From Cytophagales bacterium (lineage in GTDB: Bacteria > Bacteroidota > Bacteroidia > Cytophagales > Microscillaceae), in assembly GCA_013298075.1 (NCBI GenBank), contig JAAFJG010000020.1:1-64000 (forward strand): DNA of 64,000 nt, written 5' to 3'. A program made the translations under genes and the position numbers. This document shows, piece by piece, positions 32,676 to 42,244 of this stretch. Numbering within the stretch: position 1 is the stretch's first letter; each line of letters starts with the position of its first letter. The notes below the pieces were generated by a model. That model saw only the letters and a program-made list of their open reading frames with translations. It did not search any database and was not told the origin of the DNA.

Positions 32676-32751
32676 GATTCCGTAGCTCAGCTGGTAGAGC
32701 ATTACACTTTTAATGTAGTGGTCCTGGGTTCGAATCCCAGCGGGATCACCA
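32676..32751 (+). tRNA. tRNA-Lys (anticodon TTT), copy 1
   Basis: The cloverleaf folds fully: acceptor GATTCCG/CGGGATC, D arm GCTC/GAGC, anticodon stem TTACA/TGTAG around CTTTTAA, and T arm CTGGG-TTCGAAT-CCCAG. Discriminator A73 and CCA are encoded (32748-32751). The anticodon TTT is at 32709-32711. Confidence 0.97.
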
Positions 32752-32804
32752 GAAAATAAGAAATAGAAAATAAGTTGTTAGGTTAAGTTTAAGTAAAAAT
32801 ATAT

Positions 32805-32880
32805 GATTCCGTAGCTCAGCTGGTAGAGCATTACACTTTTAATGTAGTGGTCCTGGGTTCGAATCCCAGCGGGATCACCA
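32805..32880 (+). tRNA. tRNA-Lys (anticodon TTT), copy 2
   Basis: Identical to copy 1 over all 76 positions including the encoded CCA, after a 53-nt spacer. The ATATGATTCCG lead-in is shared too, pointing to a recent tandem duplication. Confidence 0.97.
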
Positions 32881-34594: not shown

Positions 34595-36715
34595 TTAAAA
34601 ATCATTCTCTTGATTATCCAAAAATAAATCTGGATTTTTCTCAAAAGTAATATCTAAAATCTCTAACCCATTTGTAATATGTGTTTCTCGAAAAGATAGA
34701 TTTTGTTTTATTTTTGATATAATTTCTTCAATTATATTTAGCTTATGAAGAGTTAATTCTTTTGTAGTTTTACCCCATTCCCAAATTTTCTTCCAAAGAG
34801 ATATAGGTGTATTTTTTATTTTATTTAATTGATTTTGTTTTTCCCATTCTTGTATTGTAGAATCTTCTATTAAATAACGTTTTTGATTTTTTTCATCAAT
34901 AAAATCATTTTTGATAAATTCTAAGTCAATATCATTGAATCTTTTTGTTTTTAATTCTTTCCAACAATCTTCTTTTTTTCCCCACTCAGATACTAAACCA
35001 TCATATTTTTTTAGAAAATGATGAATATTTTCTAACAATTTTTGTATAATTTTCCTTAATTCATTCGAAACTGCCTGATTTTTCCATATTTTTAGTAAAT
35101 CAATTTTTTTATTAGTTATTTCATTCAAATATGATAACGTGTAAGGAACAACTAAAAAACGTAAATCACCAATAGCTTTACCACCAACACCATATTCTTT
35201 TTCACTTGTTTTAAACAAAATTCCCATTGCTATAGCATCTTCAAAGAAAATACTATTAGGTAATTGTTTTTTATTATTTCTTAAAACATCTATATAATTT
35301 TTTAAAAACTCGATATAATTTTTTTGGCTACCTCTTGCAACAAAATAAGGAAAAAGATTCCACGCATTATAAAATTTTGCTAAGAGTTCTTTTTGAAATA
35401 ATTGATTTTTTGGAGTTTTTATTTCAAAAGCTTTTCTTTTTGCTGGTGTTGTTCCTTCTTTATTTAATTCATTTTTATATTGTCCTCTGGCACGTTCATA
35501 AAACCATCTTGTTTGTTGATTTCGATTGGTAGGATTAGGTGCCCAAGTCAGCCTTGATAATTTTTCTAGTTCAATATGAAAAGGGTGATTTGAACTCAAA
35601 TCAGCCACAGAAACTTTATTTTGACTATTTGCATATTCTGCAATTCTTGAAACTATACTTGCAAACTCGTCTTTCTTTTTTACAATGGTCAGTTTTACTT
35701 GTACAAATATATGAGTTAAATCAGATTTATCTTGTTTTTGAGAATGAAAAATAGAAGCAGTAGTTTGCCCTCCGTTTACGATTTGAAAATCCTTAACTTT
35801 TGCAATACCTTTTCCACCATTTTCTAAATTTATTATTTCTACTTCTTCAGCTGTTGCCGCTATACCATTATTAAAAGCCAAGAACATGTGAGGCTCTTTT
35901 TTAATCGTATCTCTAATACCTTTATTTATTTTTCCTGTGAATTGTAAAAAAGAACGAACATTTTGCTCTAATAATCTCGAGCCAAACTCTCGATAAATAT
36001 CCGATAATGTATTTCCCGCGATGATAGCTAAATACGACTCATAATCTTCATTCTCAGAAACCATAGATAAACATGGCACTGCCCCACCAAAGTTATTATT
36101 AAAGTCTATTTGTATAGGTTCACGTTTATTTTTTGATGTATAAAGTTGATAAAATCTTTCTAAGTCCCATAAATGATACTTAATAAAAATAGAGCGATCC
36201 TCTTGATCGACTACAATTACTATTTCTGTATCTTTAGGTGGATCACCTAAAGTTTTGCCGTTTGTAATTATAAATATATTAACTCTAACTATATCTTCCC
36301 GAAATCTTAATAATGTTCGGACAAAATCATAAACTGGTGCAGATTCTTCCATATCTTTAATTTTGCCTTTAATAGCATCATGAAAAAAACGTTTTGCTAA
36401 ATTTGAATGAGTTGTAACATCATCTTTCCCAACTGAGGAGTAATTTTCAGTAGTTTGAAAAATCGATATAAATAAGTCTATCGTTTCATACGTTTCACTC
36501 AAAGCATACCCATTAATTTTATGCTGTCTTTTTCCTTTATCATTTTCTTTGATATCTGTGCAAATAAATACATTTTCCGTTTCACCTGCTTCTATTAGCG
36601 ATTCAACCATAAATTCAGTAAATTTATTTTCTGGTGAAGCACCATCTTCTTCACTTTCAACCATAGCATTTACCTCTTGGAGTATGCTATTATAATATTT
36701 TTCTAATTCATTCAT
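34595..36715 (-). CDS. AIPR family (abortive phage infection) protein (706 aa)
   Basis: The AIPR core is recognisable by HMFLAFNNGIAATAEEVEI and DFQIVNGGQTTASIFHSQ (residues ~280-320), with the following VQVKLTIVKK...IAEYANSQNKV. An N-terminal domain (~1-200) precedes it. AIPR proteins are found with Z1 and DUF4420 proteins in restriction and phage-defence operons and also as abortive-infection factors; their biochemical activity is not settled. It overlaps the upstream DUF4420 gene by 8 nt and is the last gene of the operon. The frame is intact over its full length. Confidence 0.85.
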   Translation of the reverse strand: MNELEKYYNSILQEVNAMVESEEDGASPENKFTEFMVESLIEAGETENVFICTDIKENDKGKRQHKINGYALSETYETIDLFISIFQTTENYSSVGKDDVTTHSNLAKRFFHDAIKGKIKDMEESAPVYDFVRTLLRFREDIVRVNIFIITNGKTLGDPPKDTEIVIVVDQEDRSIFIKYHLWDLERFYQLYTSKNKREPIQIDFNNNFGGAVPCLSMVSENEDYESYLAIIAGNTLSDIYREFGSRLLEQNVRSFLQFTGKINKGIRDTIKKEPHMFLAFNNGIAATAEEVEIINLENGGKGIAKVKDFQIVNGGQTTASIFHSQKQDKSDLTHIFVQVKLTIVKKKDEFASIVSRIAEYANSQNKVSVADLSSNHPFHIELEKLSRLTWAPNPTNRNQQTRWFYERARGQYKNELNKEGTTPAKRKAFEIKTPKNQLFQKELLAKFYNAWNLFPYFVARGSQKNYIEFLKNYIDVLRNNKKQLPNSIFFEDAIAMGILFKTSEKEYGVGGKAIGDLRFLVVPYTLSYLNEITNKKIDLLKIWKNQAVSNELRKIIQKLLENIHHFLKKYDGLVSEWGKKEDCWKELKTKRFNDIDLEFIKNDFIDEKNQKRYLIEDSTIQEWEKQNQLNKIKNTPISLWKKIWEWGKTTKELTLHKLNIIEEIISKIKQNLSFRETHITNGLEILDITFEKNPDLFLDNQENDF

Positions 36716-37718
36716 GATTTTTGATAGTTTTTAGTACATTATCTTGAGAAATAAGTGATTTTTGAAGACTTAGAAGACTAATAGAATATTTAGTTTCACT
36801 AATTCCATTAGGCATATTACGAGCAGTTAAACGTGGAGAAGTACTATTTATTTGATAATAATGAAGATTTTCTACCTGATAAAATACATCTTCATAAAAT
36901 TTTTTATGTAAATCATAATATCCAGCATCTAATATTTTTTGTTTAAATTTATAAGTAGCAGAAGTATTATTTTTTAATAAATTAAATAATTCGTCTATTA
37001 ATTGGTTTAAATTTTTACCTATTTTATCACTTGTTTCGAGAGATATATGTAATAAAAATAAGTGTTCAAAAAAACTTTCATCTAATTGCAATTCATTGCT
37101 GATAGATAATTTTTGAGCATTATTTTTTGTAGTTTTTATTTCTAATGCCCATTTATTTTTATAATAAAAGTCTTGTGGAGCTTTTAACATACCCAACCAA
37201 GAATCTAAAATATAATCAATATTTTGACTATTTTCAACTAATATTTTTAAAAATATCAGTTCTCCAAAAAGTCCTTTTTGTTGATTGATATTTAAGCCTG
37301 CCTCATATAATTTTTCAAAAAGACTTTGCCATTTTAAAAATCTTCGTTTTAGCGTTTTTAACAGAGTAACTTCATTTTCAACATTTTTCACATTATTGAT
37401 TAAATCCTCACAAAGTACTGCAAATATATCTGCATGTAAAGGTGTAAGTAAAATAAAAAATAATAATTTTTTAGATTTATCTATTTCGTCTGATACAATT
37501 TCTATTTTTATTTCTTTTAAATTAGCAAGGTCAATTGATTGATTATCAAATGATTGACTTACCTTAAACACAATAGAACGCATTTTTTCAGCATTTTTAA
37601 TAGCAACATATAAATCTGGTTTTACTTCTAAGGCATAACGTCTCAGTAAAATACCACCTTTAAAATTTATATCATTTTCTAAGGCTTCCCAAATTGTTTC
37701 AATTTTAGTTTTCATCAT
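36708..37718 (-). CDS. DUF4420 PD-(D/E)XK nuclease-like protein (336 aa)
   Basis: The restriction-enzyme-like core shows GLFGELIFL near residue 149 (the first-helix Glu). QDFYYKNKWALEIKTTK follows near 183-199 (Asp, then Glu-x-Lys), forming a complete PD-(D/E)XK metal site. The C-terminal half is alpha/beta with no other motif. DUF4420 proteins are the nuclease partner in Z1/AIPR operons. It overlaps AIPR by 8 nt and the Z1 remnant upstream by 14 nt, so all three are translationally coupled. Confidence 0.8.
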   Translation of the reverse strand: MMKTKIETIWEALENDINFKGGILLRRYALEVKPDLYVAIKNAEKMRSIVFKVSQSFDNQSIDLANLKEIKIEIVSDEIDKSKKLLFFILLTPLHADIFAVLCEDLINNVKNVENEVTLLKTLKRRFLKWQSLFEKLYEAGLNINQQKGLFGELIFLKILVENSQNIDYILDSWLGMLKAPQDFYYKNKWALEIKTTKNNAQKLSISNELQLDESFFEHLFLLHISLETSDKIGKNLNQLIDELFNLLKNNTSATYKFKQKILDAGYYDLHKKFYEDVFYQVENLHYYQINSTSPRLTARNMPNGISETKYSISLLSLQKSLISQDNVLKTIKNHE

Positions 37719-38472
37719 AAATAGGTGCGTCTAATTGTTCGTCATTTTCGAAATAAGGTAAAAGTTGTCCTTGTATAGCATAACCAATATTAATTACAGA
37801 ATCATCTTGATTACTTTTAGGAAATGAAACAGCAAAACCAATGATAGGACAATCCATATTATTCATTTTAGCACTTGCTGGGTCAATAGAGTATATCAAT
37901 AATAAAGGATTTTTAGCATCTCTGTATTCGTTTCTTATGATTTGTCCACTTATATATTGAGATGAATCTTTCGTTTCTTGCGAGTTTTCTGTATCACTTT
38001 TTTTGTTATTTTCTTTATTTTTAATAACATTAAGTTGCGATTCTGTCATATCTATTACTTCGTGTGGTGGGCTTATAATATGCGATTTATTAAGATAATA
38101 AATAGTATCATCACTACTTTTATCATCTTGATTACGAGTAATCATAGCAATTTTTTGTGAAACTCCATCAATCGTATATTCTGCATATCTTTCAGCATTA
38201 CTTTTTGTAATAAGTGCTACTGACCAATGTGTAAGTTCTTGGTAAGATAACAATTTGGTAATATAATTATTGATAAAATCTGGATTTGTTCGCCTTGAAT
38301 TTGGAGCATTTTGAAAGCCTGATAAAAAGGATTGTACTTTCCGTACTTCTATATTTTTCCAGACAAAACTTTTAGGAAATAGTTCTTTATTATTTTTGCC
38401 TATTGAAGCAATAAATTTTTTTGTATGCTCAAAATTGCGTTGAAGTATTGGGATTTTTCTCGTGAAAAAAAA
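37705..38472 (-). pseudogene. C-terminal part of a Z1-domain endonuclease, N-terminus missing
   Basis: The open frame of 255 codons begins immediately after the helicase stop and is in the helicase frame. It has no ATG in the first 73 codons; the first possible start is a TTG at 38253, giving 182 aa. Diagnostic Z1-family tail features are FVWKNIEVRKVQSFLSGFQN, SYQELTHWSVALI, SPPHEVIDM, NPLLLIYSIDP and CPIIGFAVSFP. Z1 proteins are normally much longer, with a helicase-like Z1 domain before this tail. The fragment therefore lacks the ATPase/Z1 part. It may be a dead remnant, a short protein from the TTG, or a readthrough extension of the helicase. Confidence 0.65.
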
Positions 38473-41400
38473 TTAAGAATTTATAATTTTACCAGCCTGT
38501 AAAATATGAATGGGCATAGGTTCTTCTAATTTCCAAATAATACTCATAGGTAGAGAAGATTCATGTTTCACATAATTTGCCTTACCTAAAAAATAAAAAG
38601 GAGATGCGTTACCTTTGCGTTTTTTATCAATTCTAACAAATAGTAAAATAGTATTACCTGTTTCTTGATGTGTAATATATCGTTTACCTGTATTAGAAGT
38701 TTCTGAGGTTTTGCTTTGTGACTGCCAATGAAATAATACATCACTAATAGCATAATCTTCATAAGAAGTAGTAGGCGAATAATGTTTGTCTGATTTATTC
38801 AAAGTAATAAACAAAACATCTGTCTTTATATTAGCAAGGTACAAAACTCCCTCACCTTGTGGTTTCCTCAAATTAAATTCAAGAAAGCCTAAACTTGATA
38901 AAATCTCATCACGATTATAGGCACAATGTAAATACAAAGTATGTATAGGTGAGATTACAATTGGTTTGTCTACAAAATTTATTTTCTCTTTTGCAAATAA
39001 TAAAATACTTTTTAGTTCATTAATAAACCATTGATTATCAAATAATTGAGTTAAACTATCTGAAAGAGAAACAAAACCTAATTCTTTACCTTTAACCCAA
39101 AAATCATAATGTAGCATCAATGCAAATGTTTTATTATCATTATTTTGTAAATCTATATTGTTATTACTTTCAATCCAAGATAGTATAAAATCAATATAAT
39201 TTCTCGAATTAATATGTAAAAAACGTTTTATACCTTTAGTTAATATTTCTTCGTTAGAAATCTCTATAGTTTCCAATATTCCTGCTTGTTGCAATAATTT
39301 ATGCCAACAAGATTTATCGTAAATATCATAAAGAGATAACTGATAGTGATGTAAAAAATTCAATAAATTTAACTCATTACCTGTATCTGTGAAAAAATTT
39401 TGTATGCGTTGTATAAGTTGATTTTTATTACTATTTAATGAAAATCTAACATTTTGTAAAATATGTTCTTTGGCTACTTTTTCCAGTATAATAGAACTAC
39501 CTGAAGGTAAATTAGGAAAATCATTTTCTATTTCTTTAGAAATAGATTGTGTATTTTTTGTTATTAGAGACTTAAATTTACTTTCAAAGTTATAATATTT
39601 ATGTGCTTGCCCTATAAAATCTAAAACTGTTAAATATTCTTTATTAGGACTTAATCTTAAACCTCTGCCTAATTGTTGCAAAAAGACAATTAAACTTTCT
39701 GTAGGTCGCAAAAATAAAATAGTATCAACTTCAGGAATATCAATTCCTTCATTAAAAATATCTACAGTAAAAATAAAATTTACTTCTCTATTGACTAACA
39801 TTTTTGGTGCATTTTGGCGTAATTCTTTTGGACTATTGCCAAACAAAGCCAAAGAAGATATACCTACTTGATTAAAGTGCTGCGCCATAAATGTCGCATG
39901 TTCAATACTTGCACAAAATGCCAAACCAATAACATCATAGACATTTTTTACATATTTTTCTAGCGCTTGCACAATCAAATTTGCCCTACTTTGATTATTT
40001 AATTTTTCAGATAGTTCTGTAATATCATAATAACCTTTTTTCCAAGCCATTGCAGAATAATCTACTACATCAGAAATCCCGAAATATTGAAACGGTGTTA
40101 ATAATTTACGATTTAAAGCATCGTACAAGCGTATTTCTGCTGAAGTATGATTATCAAAAAATACTTCTACACTTTTTCCATCTGTACGTTCAGGTGTGGC
40201 AGTTAAGCCTAATAAAATGGTTGGTTTGTAGTATGATAAAAGCGTTTGATATGAATTAGAAGCAGCATGATGAAATTCATCTATGATAATAAAATCATAA
40301 AAATTTGTTGTTGTTAGATTACAAAAGTCCTTAGAATTAAAAGATTGAATAGATATAAATAAATGGTCTATTTGATTTGGTTTAAAATTCCCAACAAGCA
40401 AAGAGCCAAAATTTTGTTCTTTTAAAACAGCACGAAAACAAGCTAAACTTTGTTTTAATATTTCCTCTCTATGTGCTACAAATAAAAGTCTGTTTTTCAT
40501 TTTTTGATTTTTTGCTACAAAATTTTTATAGTCAAATGCTGAAATAACCGTTTTACCTGTTCCTGTGGCAGCTACTATCAAATTTTTATATCTTTTATGT
40601 ATTTGCCTTTCTGCTTCTAATTTATCTAAAATTTCTTGTTGATACGAAAAAGGTTGCAAATCAAAGAAAAATGTAAAATTATTTATTAATTTTTCATCTG
40701 GACTTAAAGCAATTTGTAAACGTTCTTTTTCTTGGTGTTCAAACTTTACAAATTCTTTATCATTCCAATAAGCCTCAAAAGTTCCTTCAAACTTTTGTAT
40801 AATATGATTATTATCTTTTGCTGTAACTTTTAAATTCCATTCTAAGCCATCGGTTAAGGCAGGATTAGATAAATTTGAAGAGCCTATATAAGCTGTAGTA
40901 AAACCTGTATCTCTATGAAATAAATAAGCTTTAGCGTGTAAACGAGTTCTATTTGTGTCATAAGAAACTTTTATTTCAGTATTAGGCAAGTTTGATAAAA
41001 ACTCGACCGCTTTATAATCAGTTGCTTTCATATAAGAAGTTGTAATAATTCTTAGACGAGCATTAGGGCGACTTGTAAACTCTTTTAATTCATTTTCTAT
41101 AATTCTAATTCCTGACCACTTTACAAAAGATATAAGCATATCTATTTTATCAGAAGTCAAAATTTCTTTTCTTATTTCACTTGCCAACGAAGGCTCTTTT
41201 AGAGAACCAGTAAATAATGAATTTTGGGAAAGAGAAGTGAGAGGTCTTATTATTTTATTTTGGAGATGCAAATTTGTGTCTAAAGAATTTTGAATAGATA
41301 AAAGCAATTCATTTTCAACCTGTATCTTATAAAGTTCTAAACTATGTTCTTGCGTTTTATTTGCTAAAAAATCTAAAATACTGTTAGTTAAATCAACTTG

Positions 41401-41589
41401 TTTTACTAAATTATTTCTTTCTCTCAAAAGAATTTTCTCAAAAATATTTTTTAGGTGTTTAGCTAATATTATATGACTCTCTTCCTCATCTATTTTTTCT
41501 TTTTCGAATGATAGATGAGAATTTTCAGGTTTATTAAGTTCCTGATTTAATAAAATACTGATAATTTCCTCGTAAAGCCCTGTTTTCAT
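38473..41589 (-). CDS. PLD nuclease-SF2 helicase-DUF3427 defence protein (1038 aa)
   Basis: The N-terminal phospholipase-D-like domain has a clear HxK site in RLHAKAYLF near residue 215 and GSSNLS after it. Superfamily 2 helicase motifs follow: Walker A AATGTGKT near 341, DEFHH near 435, TATPERTDG near 465 and motif VI QLGRGLRL near 641. The C-terminal ~150 residues (ISDVLFHWQSQS, GKRYITHQE, PMSIIWKLEEPMPI) match DUF3427. This fusion is known as a restriction or anti-phage helicase-nuclease that acts on foreign DNA. All motifs look intact. It starts one nucleotide after the preceding gene's stop, indicating coupling. Confidence 0.85.
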   Translation of the reverse strand: MKTGLYEEIISILLNQELNKPENSHLSFEKEKIDEEESHIILAKHLKNIFEKILLRERNNLVKQVDLTNSILDFLANKTQEHSLELYKIQVENELLLSIQNSLDTNLHLQNKIIRPLTSLSQNSLFTGSLKEPSLASEIRKEILTSDKIDMLISFVKWSGIRIIENELKEFTSRPNARLRIITTSYMKATDYKAVEFLSNLPNTEIKVSYDTNRTRLHAKAYLFHRDTGFTTAYIGSSNLSNPALTDGLEWNLKVTAKDNNHIIQKFEGTFEAYWNDKEFVKFEHQEKERLQIALSPDEKLINNFTFFFDLQPFSYQQEILDKLEAERQIHKRYKNLIVAATGTGKTVISAFDYKNFVAKNQKMKNRLLFVAHREEILKQSLACFRAVLKEQNFGSLLVGNFKPNQIDHLFISIQSFNSKDFCNLTTTNFYDFIIIDEFHHAASNSYQTLLSYYKPTILLGLTATPERTDGKSVEVFFDNHTSAEIRLYDALNRKLLTPFQYFGISDVVDYSAMAWKKGYYDITELSEKLNNQSRANLIVQALEKYVKNVYDVIGLAFCASIEHATFMAQHFNQVGISSLALFGNSPKELRQNAPKMLVNREVNFIFTVDIFNEGIDIPEVDTILFLRPTESLIVFLQQLGRGLRLSPNKEYLTVLDFIGQAHKYYNFESKFKSLITKNTQSISKEIENDFPNLPSGSSIILEKVAKEHILQNVRFSLNSNKNQLIQRIQNFFTDTGNELNLLNFLHHYQLSLYDIYDKSCWHKLLQQAGILETIEISNEEILTKGIKRFLHINSRNYIDFILSWIESNNNIDLQNNDNKTFALMLHYDFWVKGKELGFVSLSDSLTQLFDNQWFINELKSILLFAKEKINFVDKPIVISPIHTLYLHCAYNRDEILSSLGFLEFNLRKPQGEGVLYLANIKTDVLFITLNKSDKHYSPTTSYEDYAISDVLFHWQSQSKTSETSNTGKRYITHQETGNTILLFVRIDKKRKGNASPFYFLGKANYVKHESSLPMSIIWKLEEPMPIHILQAGKIINS

Positions 41590-41934
41590 TTAGGCACTTT
41601 GACTTTTTAATAATTCTAACGAATTTTCACACTCCTGTAACCGATTTGAATACCAATCTCTTGAAAAATATACTACTGGTTTTATAGTACCTTCTGAATT
41701 GGTAAAATTTGCTTCAAGTATTTTATCAACGCCTTCCTGTGTAAACTGAACTGGGCAAATTAGATTTTCAAGTATTATATTATTATTCTCATTAACACTA
41801 ACAGTTAAAAATCCTACTTCGATAATGAAATTACATTTTTCTAACATAGTGTGAGAAAGTTGTTGTTGATATACTGATATTTTATGTTCTAAAAAAACAA
41901 TACTATCTGAATAAAAATTTTTAGATGATTCCAT
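41590..41934 (-). CDS. Unknown 114-aa first gene of the defence operon
   Basis: No family was recognised. The protein begins with a helical, charged segment. A beta-rich middle follows (FIIEVGFLTVSVNENNNIIL), and it ends with an aromatic stretch (VYFSRDWYSN) and a helix (NRLQECENSLELLKSQ). There is no signal peptide or membrane segment, so it is cytosolic. It is directly abutted by the helicase gene (stop to ATG with no gap), and a -7 box lies about 75 nt upstream. It may be a regulator or partner of the helicase; this is only inferred from position. Confidence 0.6.
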   Translation of the reverse strand: MESSKNFYSDSIVFLEHKISVYQQQLSHTMLEKCNFIIEVGFLTVSVNENNNIILENLICPVQFTQEGVDKILEANFTNSEGTIKPVVYFSRDWYSNRLQECENSLELLKSQSA

Positions 41935-42007: not shown

Positions 42008-42015
42008 CAAAAGTA
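42008..42015 (-). promoter_or_regulatory. -7 promoter box TACTTTTG for the defence operon
   Basis: Minus-strand TACTTTTGC lies 74 nt upstream of the first ATG (41934) and is the only TAnnTTTG match in that gap. The surrounding 41935-42285 region is over 80% AT and has no gene. Confidence 0.45.
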
Positions 42016-42244
42016 GAATAAAAAAAAATATTTTCCAAATTTTTAAATATTTTTTTACATATTATTTTACATATTATTTTTTACAAAGTAATACTTATAT
42101 TTTTAATAACAATAATAATCTACTTAATTTTTAGATGAATTTTGATTTTGAAACCTATAAAAAAATCAAAAACCAATTCCATAGAAAAAAACTTTGTTTT
42201 TCATATTTTATTTCTTTCTATCATTTATTTTCAATTATTTATTT

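What the first reader, a model, noticed from the sequence alone, without database searches (positions are those of the whole stretch)
34595..41934. Chimeric defence operon: PLD-helicase-DUF3427 joined to the tail of a Z1-DUF4420-AIPR system
Z1 endonuclease, DUF4420 nuclease and AIPR protein are known partners in a class of restriction-like operons that usually also carry a MutL/HSP90-type ATPase and a DNA methylase. Here the ATPase, methylase and Z1 N-terminus are absent. In their place stands an intact PLD-SF2-DUF3427 gene and a 114-aa unknown. All genes are tightly spaced or overlapping, so they are read as one unit. This could be a new hybrid system in which the helicase-nuclease replaces the Z1 motor, or a recombination scar between two defence operons.
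Basis: partly seen in the sequence, partly recalled or inferred. Interest (0 to 1): 0.8.

Follow-up and report, generated by a model that had tools for sequence, protein, structure and literature searches.

The report
Restriction enzyme spliced into defence operon
A complete enzyme that probably cuts chemically marked foreign DNA has taken the place of the front half of another bacterial anti-virus operon, and similar take-overs by other DNA-acting modules turn up in a few other bacteria, so defence operons seem to swap parts.

Summary
On the minus strand, 41934-34595, lie five reading frames: a 114-aa orphan, a full-length SauUSI-like type IV restriction enzyme (PLD-SF2-DUF3427), the last 255 codons of a ~930-codon Z1 protein, an intact DUF4420 nuclease (MzaD) and an intact AIPR protein (MzaE). 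The methyltransferase, ATPase and Z1 motor of a Z1/Mza operon are missing. The Z1 remnant opens at the base after the helicase stop codon.

The exact pairing did not recur: 0 of 22 SauUSI-like neighbourhoods held Mza genes. The kind of event did: in 5 of 68 AIPR loci with enough flank a foreign cassette replaces part of the operon, and in 4 of these, as in the window, a truncated Mza gene resumes 0-9 nt after the cassette's last stop codon.

Best reading: recombinational replacement of the marking and motor half by a modification-dependent enzyme, the tail kept in one unit. Methyltransferases reported for Z1 operons mark GCWGC or GCSGC, inside SauUSI's reported target Sm5CNGS, so losing the methyltransferase may be a condition of coexistence; but SauUSI-like and DUF4420 genes do not avoid each other in 394 genomes. 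A working hybrid machine is not shown, and an inert tail is not excluded.

The parts
42008..42039 (-). promoter-like site TTTG-N20-TACTTTTG, 73 nt before the first ATG
   Evidence: only minus-strand match of TTTG-N18-22-TAnnTTTG between 34 and 43.5 kb; 17 matches in the window against 7.25 expected, 0 of 100 shuffles reach 17; spacing recounted. The consensus itself is recalled. A sigma-70-type scan of the region was uninformative (56 found, 56.8 expected).
41590..41934 (-). 114-aa orphan protein; its TAA is followed directly by the helicase ATG
   Evidence: no significant Pfam, PADLOC or NCBIfam match; homologue L122:7638-8009 upstream of a Schlafen-group-3 helicase, 34% identity; besides itself 1 weak match (E 6.9e-4) in 395 genomes
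38473..41589 (-). SauUSI-like type IV restriction enzyme: PLD nuclease, SF2 helicase, DUF3427
   Evidence: PDB 7clg E 1.1e-86; H217, K219, G342-T346, D436, E437, H439 and H440 invariant in the three-sequence alignment
38472..38475 (-). joint: helicase stop codon 38475-38473; Z1 homology opens at 38472, in the frame of the helicase
37705..38472 (-). C-terminal 255 codons of a Z1 protein (MzaC), open throughout; SF2 motor and Pfam Z1 domain missing
   Evidence: no sign of faster decay among 66 loci; first ATG/GTG/TTG of the frame is the TTG at 38253
36708..37718 (-). DUF4420 PD-(D/E)XK protein (MzaD), overlapping the Z1 frame by 14 nt
   Evidence: D182, E192, K194 invariant in eight sequences
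34595..36715 (-). AIPR protein (MzaE), overlapping DUF4420 by 8 nt

Best explanation
The locus is the product of a recombinational replacement. A cassette of two genes (the 114-aa protein and a complete SauUSI-like type IV restriction enzyme) took the place of the modification and motor half of a Z1/Mza-type operon (C5 methyltransferase, HSP90/MutL-type ATPase, first ~675 codons of Z1). The joint lies at the helicase stop codon, so one promoter upstream of the 114-aa gene can read through into the Z1 C-terminal piece, DUF4420 and AIPR. Shown: the gene content, the joint, the full-length enzyme, the intact tail frames, and four other loci with the same kind of joint. Inferred: the helicase works by itself as a modified-DNA restriction enzyme (two marked sites, ATP-driven, PLD cleavage), as published for SauUSI; the tail is still transcribed and probably kept for some function; and the methyltransferase had to go, because the marks reported for Z1-operon methyltransferases (GCWGC, GCSGC) lie within the SauUSI target Sm5CNGS, so the two halves could not live together.
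For: Complete helicase, end to end against homologues and PADLOC mREase_IV. Z1 homology from the first base after its stop. The Z1 N-terminal part and the ATPase are both present in 62 of 68 genome loci with at least 6 kb upstream of AIPR. The same kind of joint in L114, L122, L107, L129: Mza homology resumes 0-9 nt after a stop codon, although the point in the Mza gene differs (Z1 676 and ~344, AIPR ~210 and ~175, DUF4420 ~40); the last cassette genes look complete at their C-termini (window; Schlafen and HNH genes; L107 ATPase). Z1 remnant no more diverged than expected from AIPR and DUF4420 identity (residual -0.007, sd 0.053, 19th lowest of 66). One promoter-like site of the Bacteroidota kind, at the head of the unit. 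C. diphtheriae BH8: a Z1/DUF4420/Dcm-like island replaces a PLD-SF2 helicase (pfam11907) plus MutT pair (PMC5379612, section 9 read). Targets: M.Pin25611FIII of a Z1+AIPR operon marks Gm5CWGC, 66% of 11 sites protected (PMC5608340, passages); M.CglI and M.NgoAVII GCSGC (PMC4267653, passages); SauUSI Sm5CNGS (PMC3874153, passages).
Against: No expression data. No allele of the same site before the event. The tail may be inert: L114 has a change of frame in its Z1 piece. A fifth replaced locus, L146, does not show the stop-exact joint: its AIPR is whole and starts 256 nt behind the last cassette gene (RhuM), which itself matches only 141 of 252 profile positions. The conflict idea fails a coarse test: in 394 genomes of the phylum other than the window's, SauUSI-like and DUF4420 genes co-occur in 2, expected 1.5 (Fisher p 0.65). 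The own genome keeps two other full C5 methyltransferase matches and a fragment; over their longest alignments the two full ones are 24-30% identical to Mza ones, so some m5C may be tolerated. Target specificity of this enzyme is unknown. The joint pattern was seen after the fact, in five loci, all in draft assemblies, three labelled MAG (L114, L122, L129). The promoter argument is not general: the same scan found 0 sites in L107, L122 and L129, one inside the Z1 piece of L114, and in the complete L069 one before the methyltransferase and one inside Z1.
Confidence: 0.5

Rival explanations
1. Recombination scar: the SauUSI-like enzyme works alone and the Z1 piece, DUF4420 and AIPR are inert passengers on their way to loss; the joint is recent.
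For: The motor and ATPase of the system are gone; the first ATG/GTG/TTG of the Z1 piece is a TTG after 73 codons; L114 has a frame change in its Z1 piece; SauUSI is a single-polypeptide enzyme (PMC3874153, passages).
Against: DUF4420 and AIPR are full open frames, DUF4420 with its conserved D-ExK residues; 255 open codons in the remnant with no excess divergence; in the five loci with a truncated Mza gene the join keeps the tail close behind a stop codon, which a random scar does not predict.
Confidence: 0.33
2. A real integrated hybrid system: the SauUSI-like helicase-nuclease serves as the motor for DUF4420 and AIPR in place of Z1 and the ATPase, with the 114-aa protein and the Z1 C-domain as adaptors.
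For: The 114-aa family was found only in two hybrid loci among the loci held, before two different helicase genes, both joined to an Mza tail; the Z1 protein is itself an SF2 motor that works with a PLD nuclease in CglI/NgoAVII, and its C-domain is separable (PMC4267653, passages); the break at residue 676 lies past the Pfam Z1 domain (407-648 in L069).
Against: The SauUSI-AIPR pairing was seen once; 0 of 22 SauUSI-like genes have such neighbours; L122 and L129 keep only AIPR, L107 a truncated DUF4420, so there is no constant set of partners; break points are not all at domain borders.
Confidence: 0.12
3. Assembly chimera joining two defence loci.
For: The genome is a draft of 153 contigs; the joint was not found again in viral contigs and no second assembly could be checked.
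Against: A chance misjoin would hardly fall exactly behind a stop codon, and five loci from different assemblies show it; none of the 20 direct-repeat families (of 53) and 25 inverted pairs (of 201) shown for the region covers the joint.
Confidence: 0.05

Closest known systems
SauUSI family of type IV (modified-cytosine) restriction enzymes
   Same: PLD nuclease, SF2 helicase, DUF3427 in one chain of ~1040 aa; PADLOC mREase_IV, PDB 7clg match
   Different: preceded by a 114-aa orphan instead of the MutT-like gene seen (by eye) before 10 of 22 homologues, and joined to an Mza tail
mzaABCDE and the Z1-DUF4420-C5 methyltransferase-AIPR systems (PMC9523054 type II; the paper prints the domain as DUF4220)
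   Same: DUF4420 and AIPR genes in the usual order and overlap; C-terminus of Z1
   Different: ATPase, methyltransferase, Z1 motor and Z1 domain are missing
C. diphtheriae BH8 island (PMC5379612)
   Same: exchange between a PLD-SF2-pfam11907 gene and a Z1/DUF4420/Dcm-like set at one locus
   Different: there the Z1 set replaced the helicase, and the section read describes no hybrid operon
CglI / NgoAVII (PMC4267653)
   Same: SF2-Z1-C-domain motor protein, PLD nuclease and C5 methyltransferase work together
   Different: separate R and N proteins and an intact motor; the three-gene systems described there have no DUF4420 or AIPR

Membership tests
Mza / Z1-DUF4420-AIPR system | Z1 protein (MzaC) with SF2 motor and Z1 domain | tested here: not met
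   no Pfam Z1 in the 255-aa piece; no Z1 in the genome, 0 of 1
Mza / Z1-DUF4420-AIPR system | HSP90/MutL-type ATPase gene | tested here: not met
   no ATPase-profile match in the window; not searched in the rest of the genome
Mza / Z1-DUF4420-AIPR system | C5 methyltransferase in the operon (Z1 type II systems) | tested here: not met
   no match in the window; two other full matches on contigs C119 and C71 and a fragment on C99
Mza / Z1-DUF4420-AIPR system | DUF4420 (MzaD) and AIPR (MzaE) | tested here: met
   NCBIfam MzaD 127.9 and MzaE 411.5 bits, below NCBI's cut-offs of 420 and 1050
SauUSI-type type IV restriction enzyme | PLD, SF2 helicase and DUF3427 in one chain, full length, catalytic residues kept | tested here: met
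SauUSI-type type IV restriction enzyme | ATP-dependent cleavage of m5C/hm5C DNA | not testable with these tools
   needs the purified enzyme
CglI/NgoAVII-type system | separate PLD nuclease (R), Z1 motor (N) and C5 methyltransferase genes | tested here: not met
   PLD and helicase in one chain, no Z1 motor, no methyltransferase in the window

The most novel reading that the evidence does not exclude
Z1/Mza operons are plug-in chassis: ORF-exact cassettes, often a small protein plus a helicase or nuclease (SauUSI-like, Schlafen group 3, HNH/ABC-3C), replace the marking and motor genes and are selected as transcriptional fusions with an AIPR tail that stays functional; in the SauUSI case the incoming enzyme attacks the very mark that the evicted methyltransferase made, so the exchange is an epigenetic take-over.
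Probability: 0.2. Interest if true: 0.75.

Novelty: new variant of a known kind. Interest (0 to 1): 0.55.

Why it matters
Defence islands are known to exchange whole systems. Here the exchange is within an operon, and the same kind of stop-codon-exact joint is seen in five loci with four kinds of cassette. If the tail is functional, AIPR (with or without DUF4420) is a module that can serve different partners, which would give a handle on what AIPR does. If the methyltransferase conflict is real, it predicts which defence systems cannot coexist and explains why they are swapped rather than added; both are testable in laboratory E. coli.

Tried and rejected
Same-site empty or intact allele: hisC and GHL10 were searched in 14 genomes of the family (matches in 14 of 14 each); in the two same-genus genomes they lie on different contigs, so no allele could be compared.

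Mutual exclusion of SauUSI-like enzymes and DUF4420 operons: not supported (2 genomes with both, 1.5 expected, 394 genomes without the own one).

Terminator argument (the joint must lie between stop codon and terminator): a simple hairpin search behind 21 ordinary SauUSI-like genes found candidates in 10, at scattered distances; not usable as a test.

Domain-border argument: the breaks at Z1 676 and AIPR ~210 lie near domain borders, those in L107 and L114 do not clearly; dropped. The AlphaFold model of the L069 Z1 protein (mean pLDDT 80) has strands at 661-666, 672-674 and 677-679, so the break may cut into a sheet; the Foldseek rows shown (50 of 88 with E <= 0.001) are nearly all SF2-type helicases or translocases with low TM-scores.

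The 114-aa protein: model with pLDDT 65, no family, no match in plasmids or viral contigs. Function unknown; a regulator or adaptor is a guess. The 80-aa protein seen in L107 and L114 has relatives in phages and plasmids, so it is no hallmark of hybrids.

Mosaic tail: AIPR is 70% identical to L069 while DUF4420 is 45% and Z1C 39% (+2.4 sd), but 63 of 2145 pairs are more extreme.

Plasmid search for more hybrids: of 104 records with AIPR and 41 with Z1, two with broken Z1 matches were opened; the Streptomyces one lies among transposases, the Devosia one is a split gene with a PD-(D/E)XK motif protein behind it; neither shows a cassette. A DUF4420 search of viral contigs found no relative.

Part of the table was cut from view; counts come. 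Of 26 viral loci with at least 6 kb upstream 12 have Z1 and ATPase; the rest, many of them distant AIPR proteins, were not studied one by one.

Full report
What is there. The minus strand from 41934 to 34595 carries five tightly packed frames: a 114-aa protein without a family; a 1038-aa PLD-SF2-DUF3427 protein; a 255-codon open frame with no Pfam match; DUF4420; AIPR. The second is a full-length member of the SauUSI kind: PADLOC's type IV model matches at 3.6e-230, the solved 'putative helicase' 7clg at 1.1e-86 (that this is SauUSI is recalled), and two homologues align from end to end. DUF4420 and AIPR are MzaD- and MzaE-like by PADLOC and NCBIfam, below NCBI's strict cut-offs.

The Z1 piece. 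The 255-aa frame found five outside matches in 296 genomes of the window's phylum (taken to be Bacteroidota from its named relatives), four in open frames of 927-943 aa and one in a 575-aa frame, each followed by DUF4420 and AIPR. Against the 933-aa Z1 protein of L069 the piece aligns from its first residue with residue 676. The SF2 motor and the Pfam Z1 domain (407-648 in L069) are therefore missing. In N.CglI and N.NgoAVII, whose Z1 proteins have been dissected, a C-terminal domain follows the Z1 domain and is soluble by itself (PMC4267653, passages read). The frame starts at the base after the helicase stop codon and in the helicase's frame. A regression of Z1 C-terminal identity on AIPR and DUF4420 identity over 66 loci gives a mean residual of -0.007 for the window (sd 0.053; 19th lowest of 66), so the piece has not decayed visibly faster than in other loci. 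It is either young or still of use.

What the operon should look like. A search of genome contigs with an AIPR alignment gave 80 loci, the best of 572 relatives. Of the 68 with at least 6 kb upstream of AIPR, 62 have the Z1 N-terminal part and the ATPase. Of the 80, 63 hold a methyltransferase-profile match and 39 a match to a Vsr-like profile (the name Vsr is mine, by eye). The closest AIPR (64%, L069, a Cytophagales metagenome bin) has methyltransferase, ATPase, Z1, DUF4420 and AIPR, as has a genome of the window's own genus at another place (L061, AIPR 40%). In a separate draw of 395 genomes of the phylum 15 have DUF4420. In 13 of them a Z1 match reaching into the N-terminal half lies in the fetched stretch; the other two are the window's genome and G192, whose locus (L011) is taken to be the same record as L114.

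Other hybrids. Six of the 68 loci lack the Z1 motor and the ATPase. L140 has a whole AIPR followed by methyltransferase and Vsr. L146 has a methyltransferase (profile 1-391 of 419), then an AAA-type protein, a DUF2357-PD-(D/E)XK protein, a RhuM-family gene and a whole AIPR that starts 256 nt further on; it is a replacement without a truncated Mza gene on the right. The other four have a foreign cassette and a truncated Mza gene behind it: L114, methyltransferase lacking its last residues, an 81-aa protein, a Schlafen-group-3 helicase (657 aa), Z1 from residue ~344, DUF4420, AIPR; L122 (Candidatus Brocadia), Vsr, methyltransferase, a homologue of the window's 114-aa protein, a Schlafen-group-3 helicase, AIPR from residue ~210; L107, methyltransferase cut at ~245, an 80-aa relative of L114's small protein, an HNH protein, an ABC-3C set, DUF4420 from residue ~40, AIPR; L129, an HNH protein, then AIPR from residue ~175. 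In these four and in the window Mza homology resumes 0-9 nt after a stop codon (profile borders and open frame; up to 21 nt by pairwise BLAST; in L114 the profile gave 40 nt because of a change of frame, and direct translation gives 2 nt). The genes that end there look complete: the window's helicase, the Schlafen and HNH proteins, whose ends match those of homologues, and the L107 ATPase, which plasmid homologues match to its last residue. Behind 21 ordinary SauUSI-like genes the median distance to the next ORF of 100 aa is 95 nt, so a joint placed at random in the first ~100 nt would fall within 10 nt about one time in ten; four further cases would then have a chance near 1e-4. This is a rough figure for a pattern seen after the fact. 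A simple cause would be selection: the cassette gene must end intact and the tail must stay close enough to be read from the same promoter. In the window the only promoter-like site of the Bacteroidota type (consensus recalled) on that strand lies 73 nt before the 114-aa gene; the pattern occurs 17 times in the window against 7.25 expected, 0 of 100 shuffles reaching 17. Elsewhere the scan is less kind: none in L107, L122 and L129, one inside the Z1 piece of L114, and in the complete L069 one before the methyltransferase and one inside Z1.

The exact pairing is single. SauUSI-like genes occur in 43 of 395 genomes at E <= 1e-60, the window's included. I read 22 neighbourhoods (20 from that list, 2; some, such as L219 and L227, cut by contig ends): 0 have Mza-profile matches or the 114-aa protein; by eye 10 have a MutT-like gene in front (no family search made).

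Why these two kinds might meet. In C. diphtheriae BH8 an island with Z1, DUF4420 and a Dcm-like methyltransferase replaces a PLD-SF2 helicase (pfam11907) and its MutT neighbour (PMC5379612, section 9 read in full). The C5 methyltransferase of a Z1+AIPR operon in Prevotella intermedia marks Gm5CWGC by bisulfite sequencing, with 66% of 11 sites protected (PMC5608340, passages); M.CglI and M.NgoAVII recognise GCSGC (PMC4267653); SauUSI cuts Sm5CNGS and needs two copies (PMC3874153, passages). Both marks lie inside that target. A SauUSI-like enzyme would then cut a genome marked by such an operon, and could enter only if the methyltransferase goes. Against this: in 394 genomes the two kinds co-occur twice, 1.5 expected; the own genome has two other full C5 methyltransferase matches of unknown target; the specificity of this enzyme is unknown. 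The idea is a hypothesis with a clear test, not a result.

Placement. By sequence the helicase is a SauUSI-type enzyme (domain and residue features met; activity untested). The tail is not an Mza system: three defining genes were tested and not met. Z1-DUF4420-methyltransferase operons with AIPR are described as a putative defence system (PMC9523054, section 11 read in full; DUF4420 is printed there as DUF4220). In the listings of seven paper searches and the passages read I saw no description of Mza hybrids; the library lacks most subscription papers and listed hits were mostly not opened, so this says little. I rate it a new variant of a known kind: known parts, known replacement in situ, but a join inside genes, exact at a stop codon, and repeated with different cassettes.

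Noticed in passing
L122:5964-11479, L114:3794-12349, L107:4124-12331, L129:9209-11827: Four further Mza-type loci in which another cassette replaces part of the operon, with the joint 0-9 nt behind a stop codon.
   Followed up: partly
L146:748-9213: A fifth replacement: AAA-type, DUF2357-PD-(D/E)XK and RhuM genes between methyltransferase and a whole AIPR, without a stop-exact joint.
   Followed up: partly
L080, L109, L111, L115 between Z1 and AIPR: Four Mza loci have an ATPase-like gene (AAA_15 by Pfam in L109, the others by eye) directly before AIPR and no DUF4420 match: another exchangeable slot.
   Followed up: partly
L078, L079, L084, L108 between methyltransferase and ATPase: A pair of genes, a ~730-aa protein with a HATPase-like N-terminus and a 370-480-aa protein with response-regulator-like text, is inserted there (by eye only).
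   Followed up: no
L125:2905-3195 and L126:2909-3202: A ~98-residue match to the C-terminal end of the SauUSI-like profile on the opposite strand, just before the methyltransferase of two complete Methanoculleus Mza loci.
   Followed up: no
L107:4896-5138 and L114:5016-5261: Homologous 80/81-aa proteins start both cassettes; relatives occur in Bacillus and Mycobacterium phages and in plasmids.
   Followed up: partly
window 32676-32880: Two tRNA-Lys(ttt) genes in tandem 1.7 kb from the tail end of the operon; a possible insertion neighbourhood.
   Followed up: no
window, whole: The pattern TTTG-N18-22-TAnnTTTG is enriched (17 against 7.25; 0 of 100 shuffles), so it can serve as a promoter marker in this genome.
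   Followed up: yes
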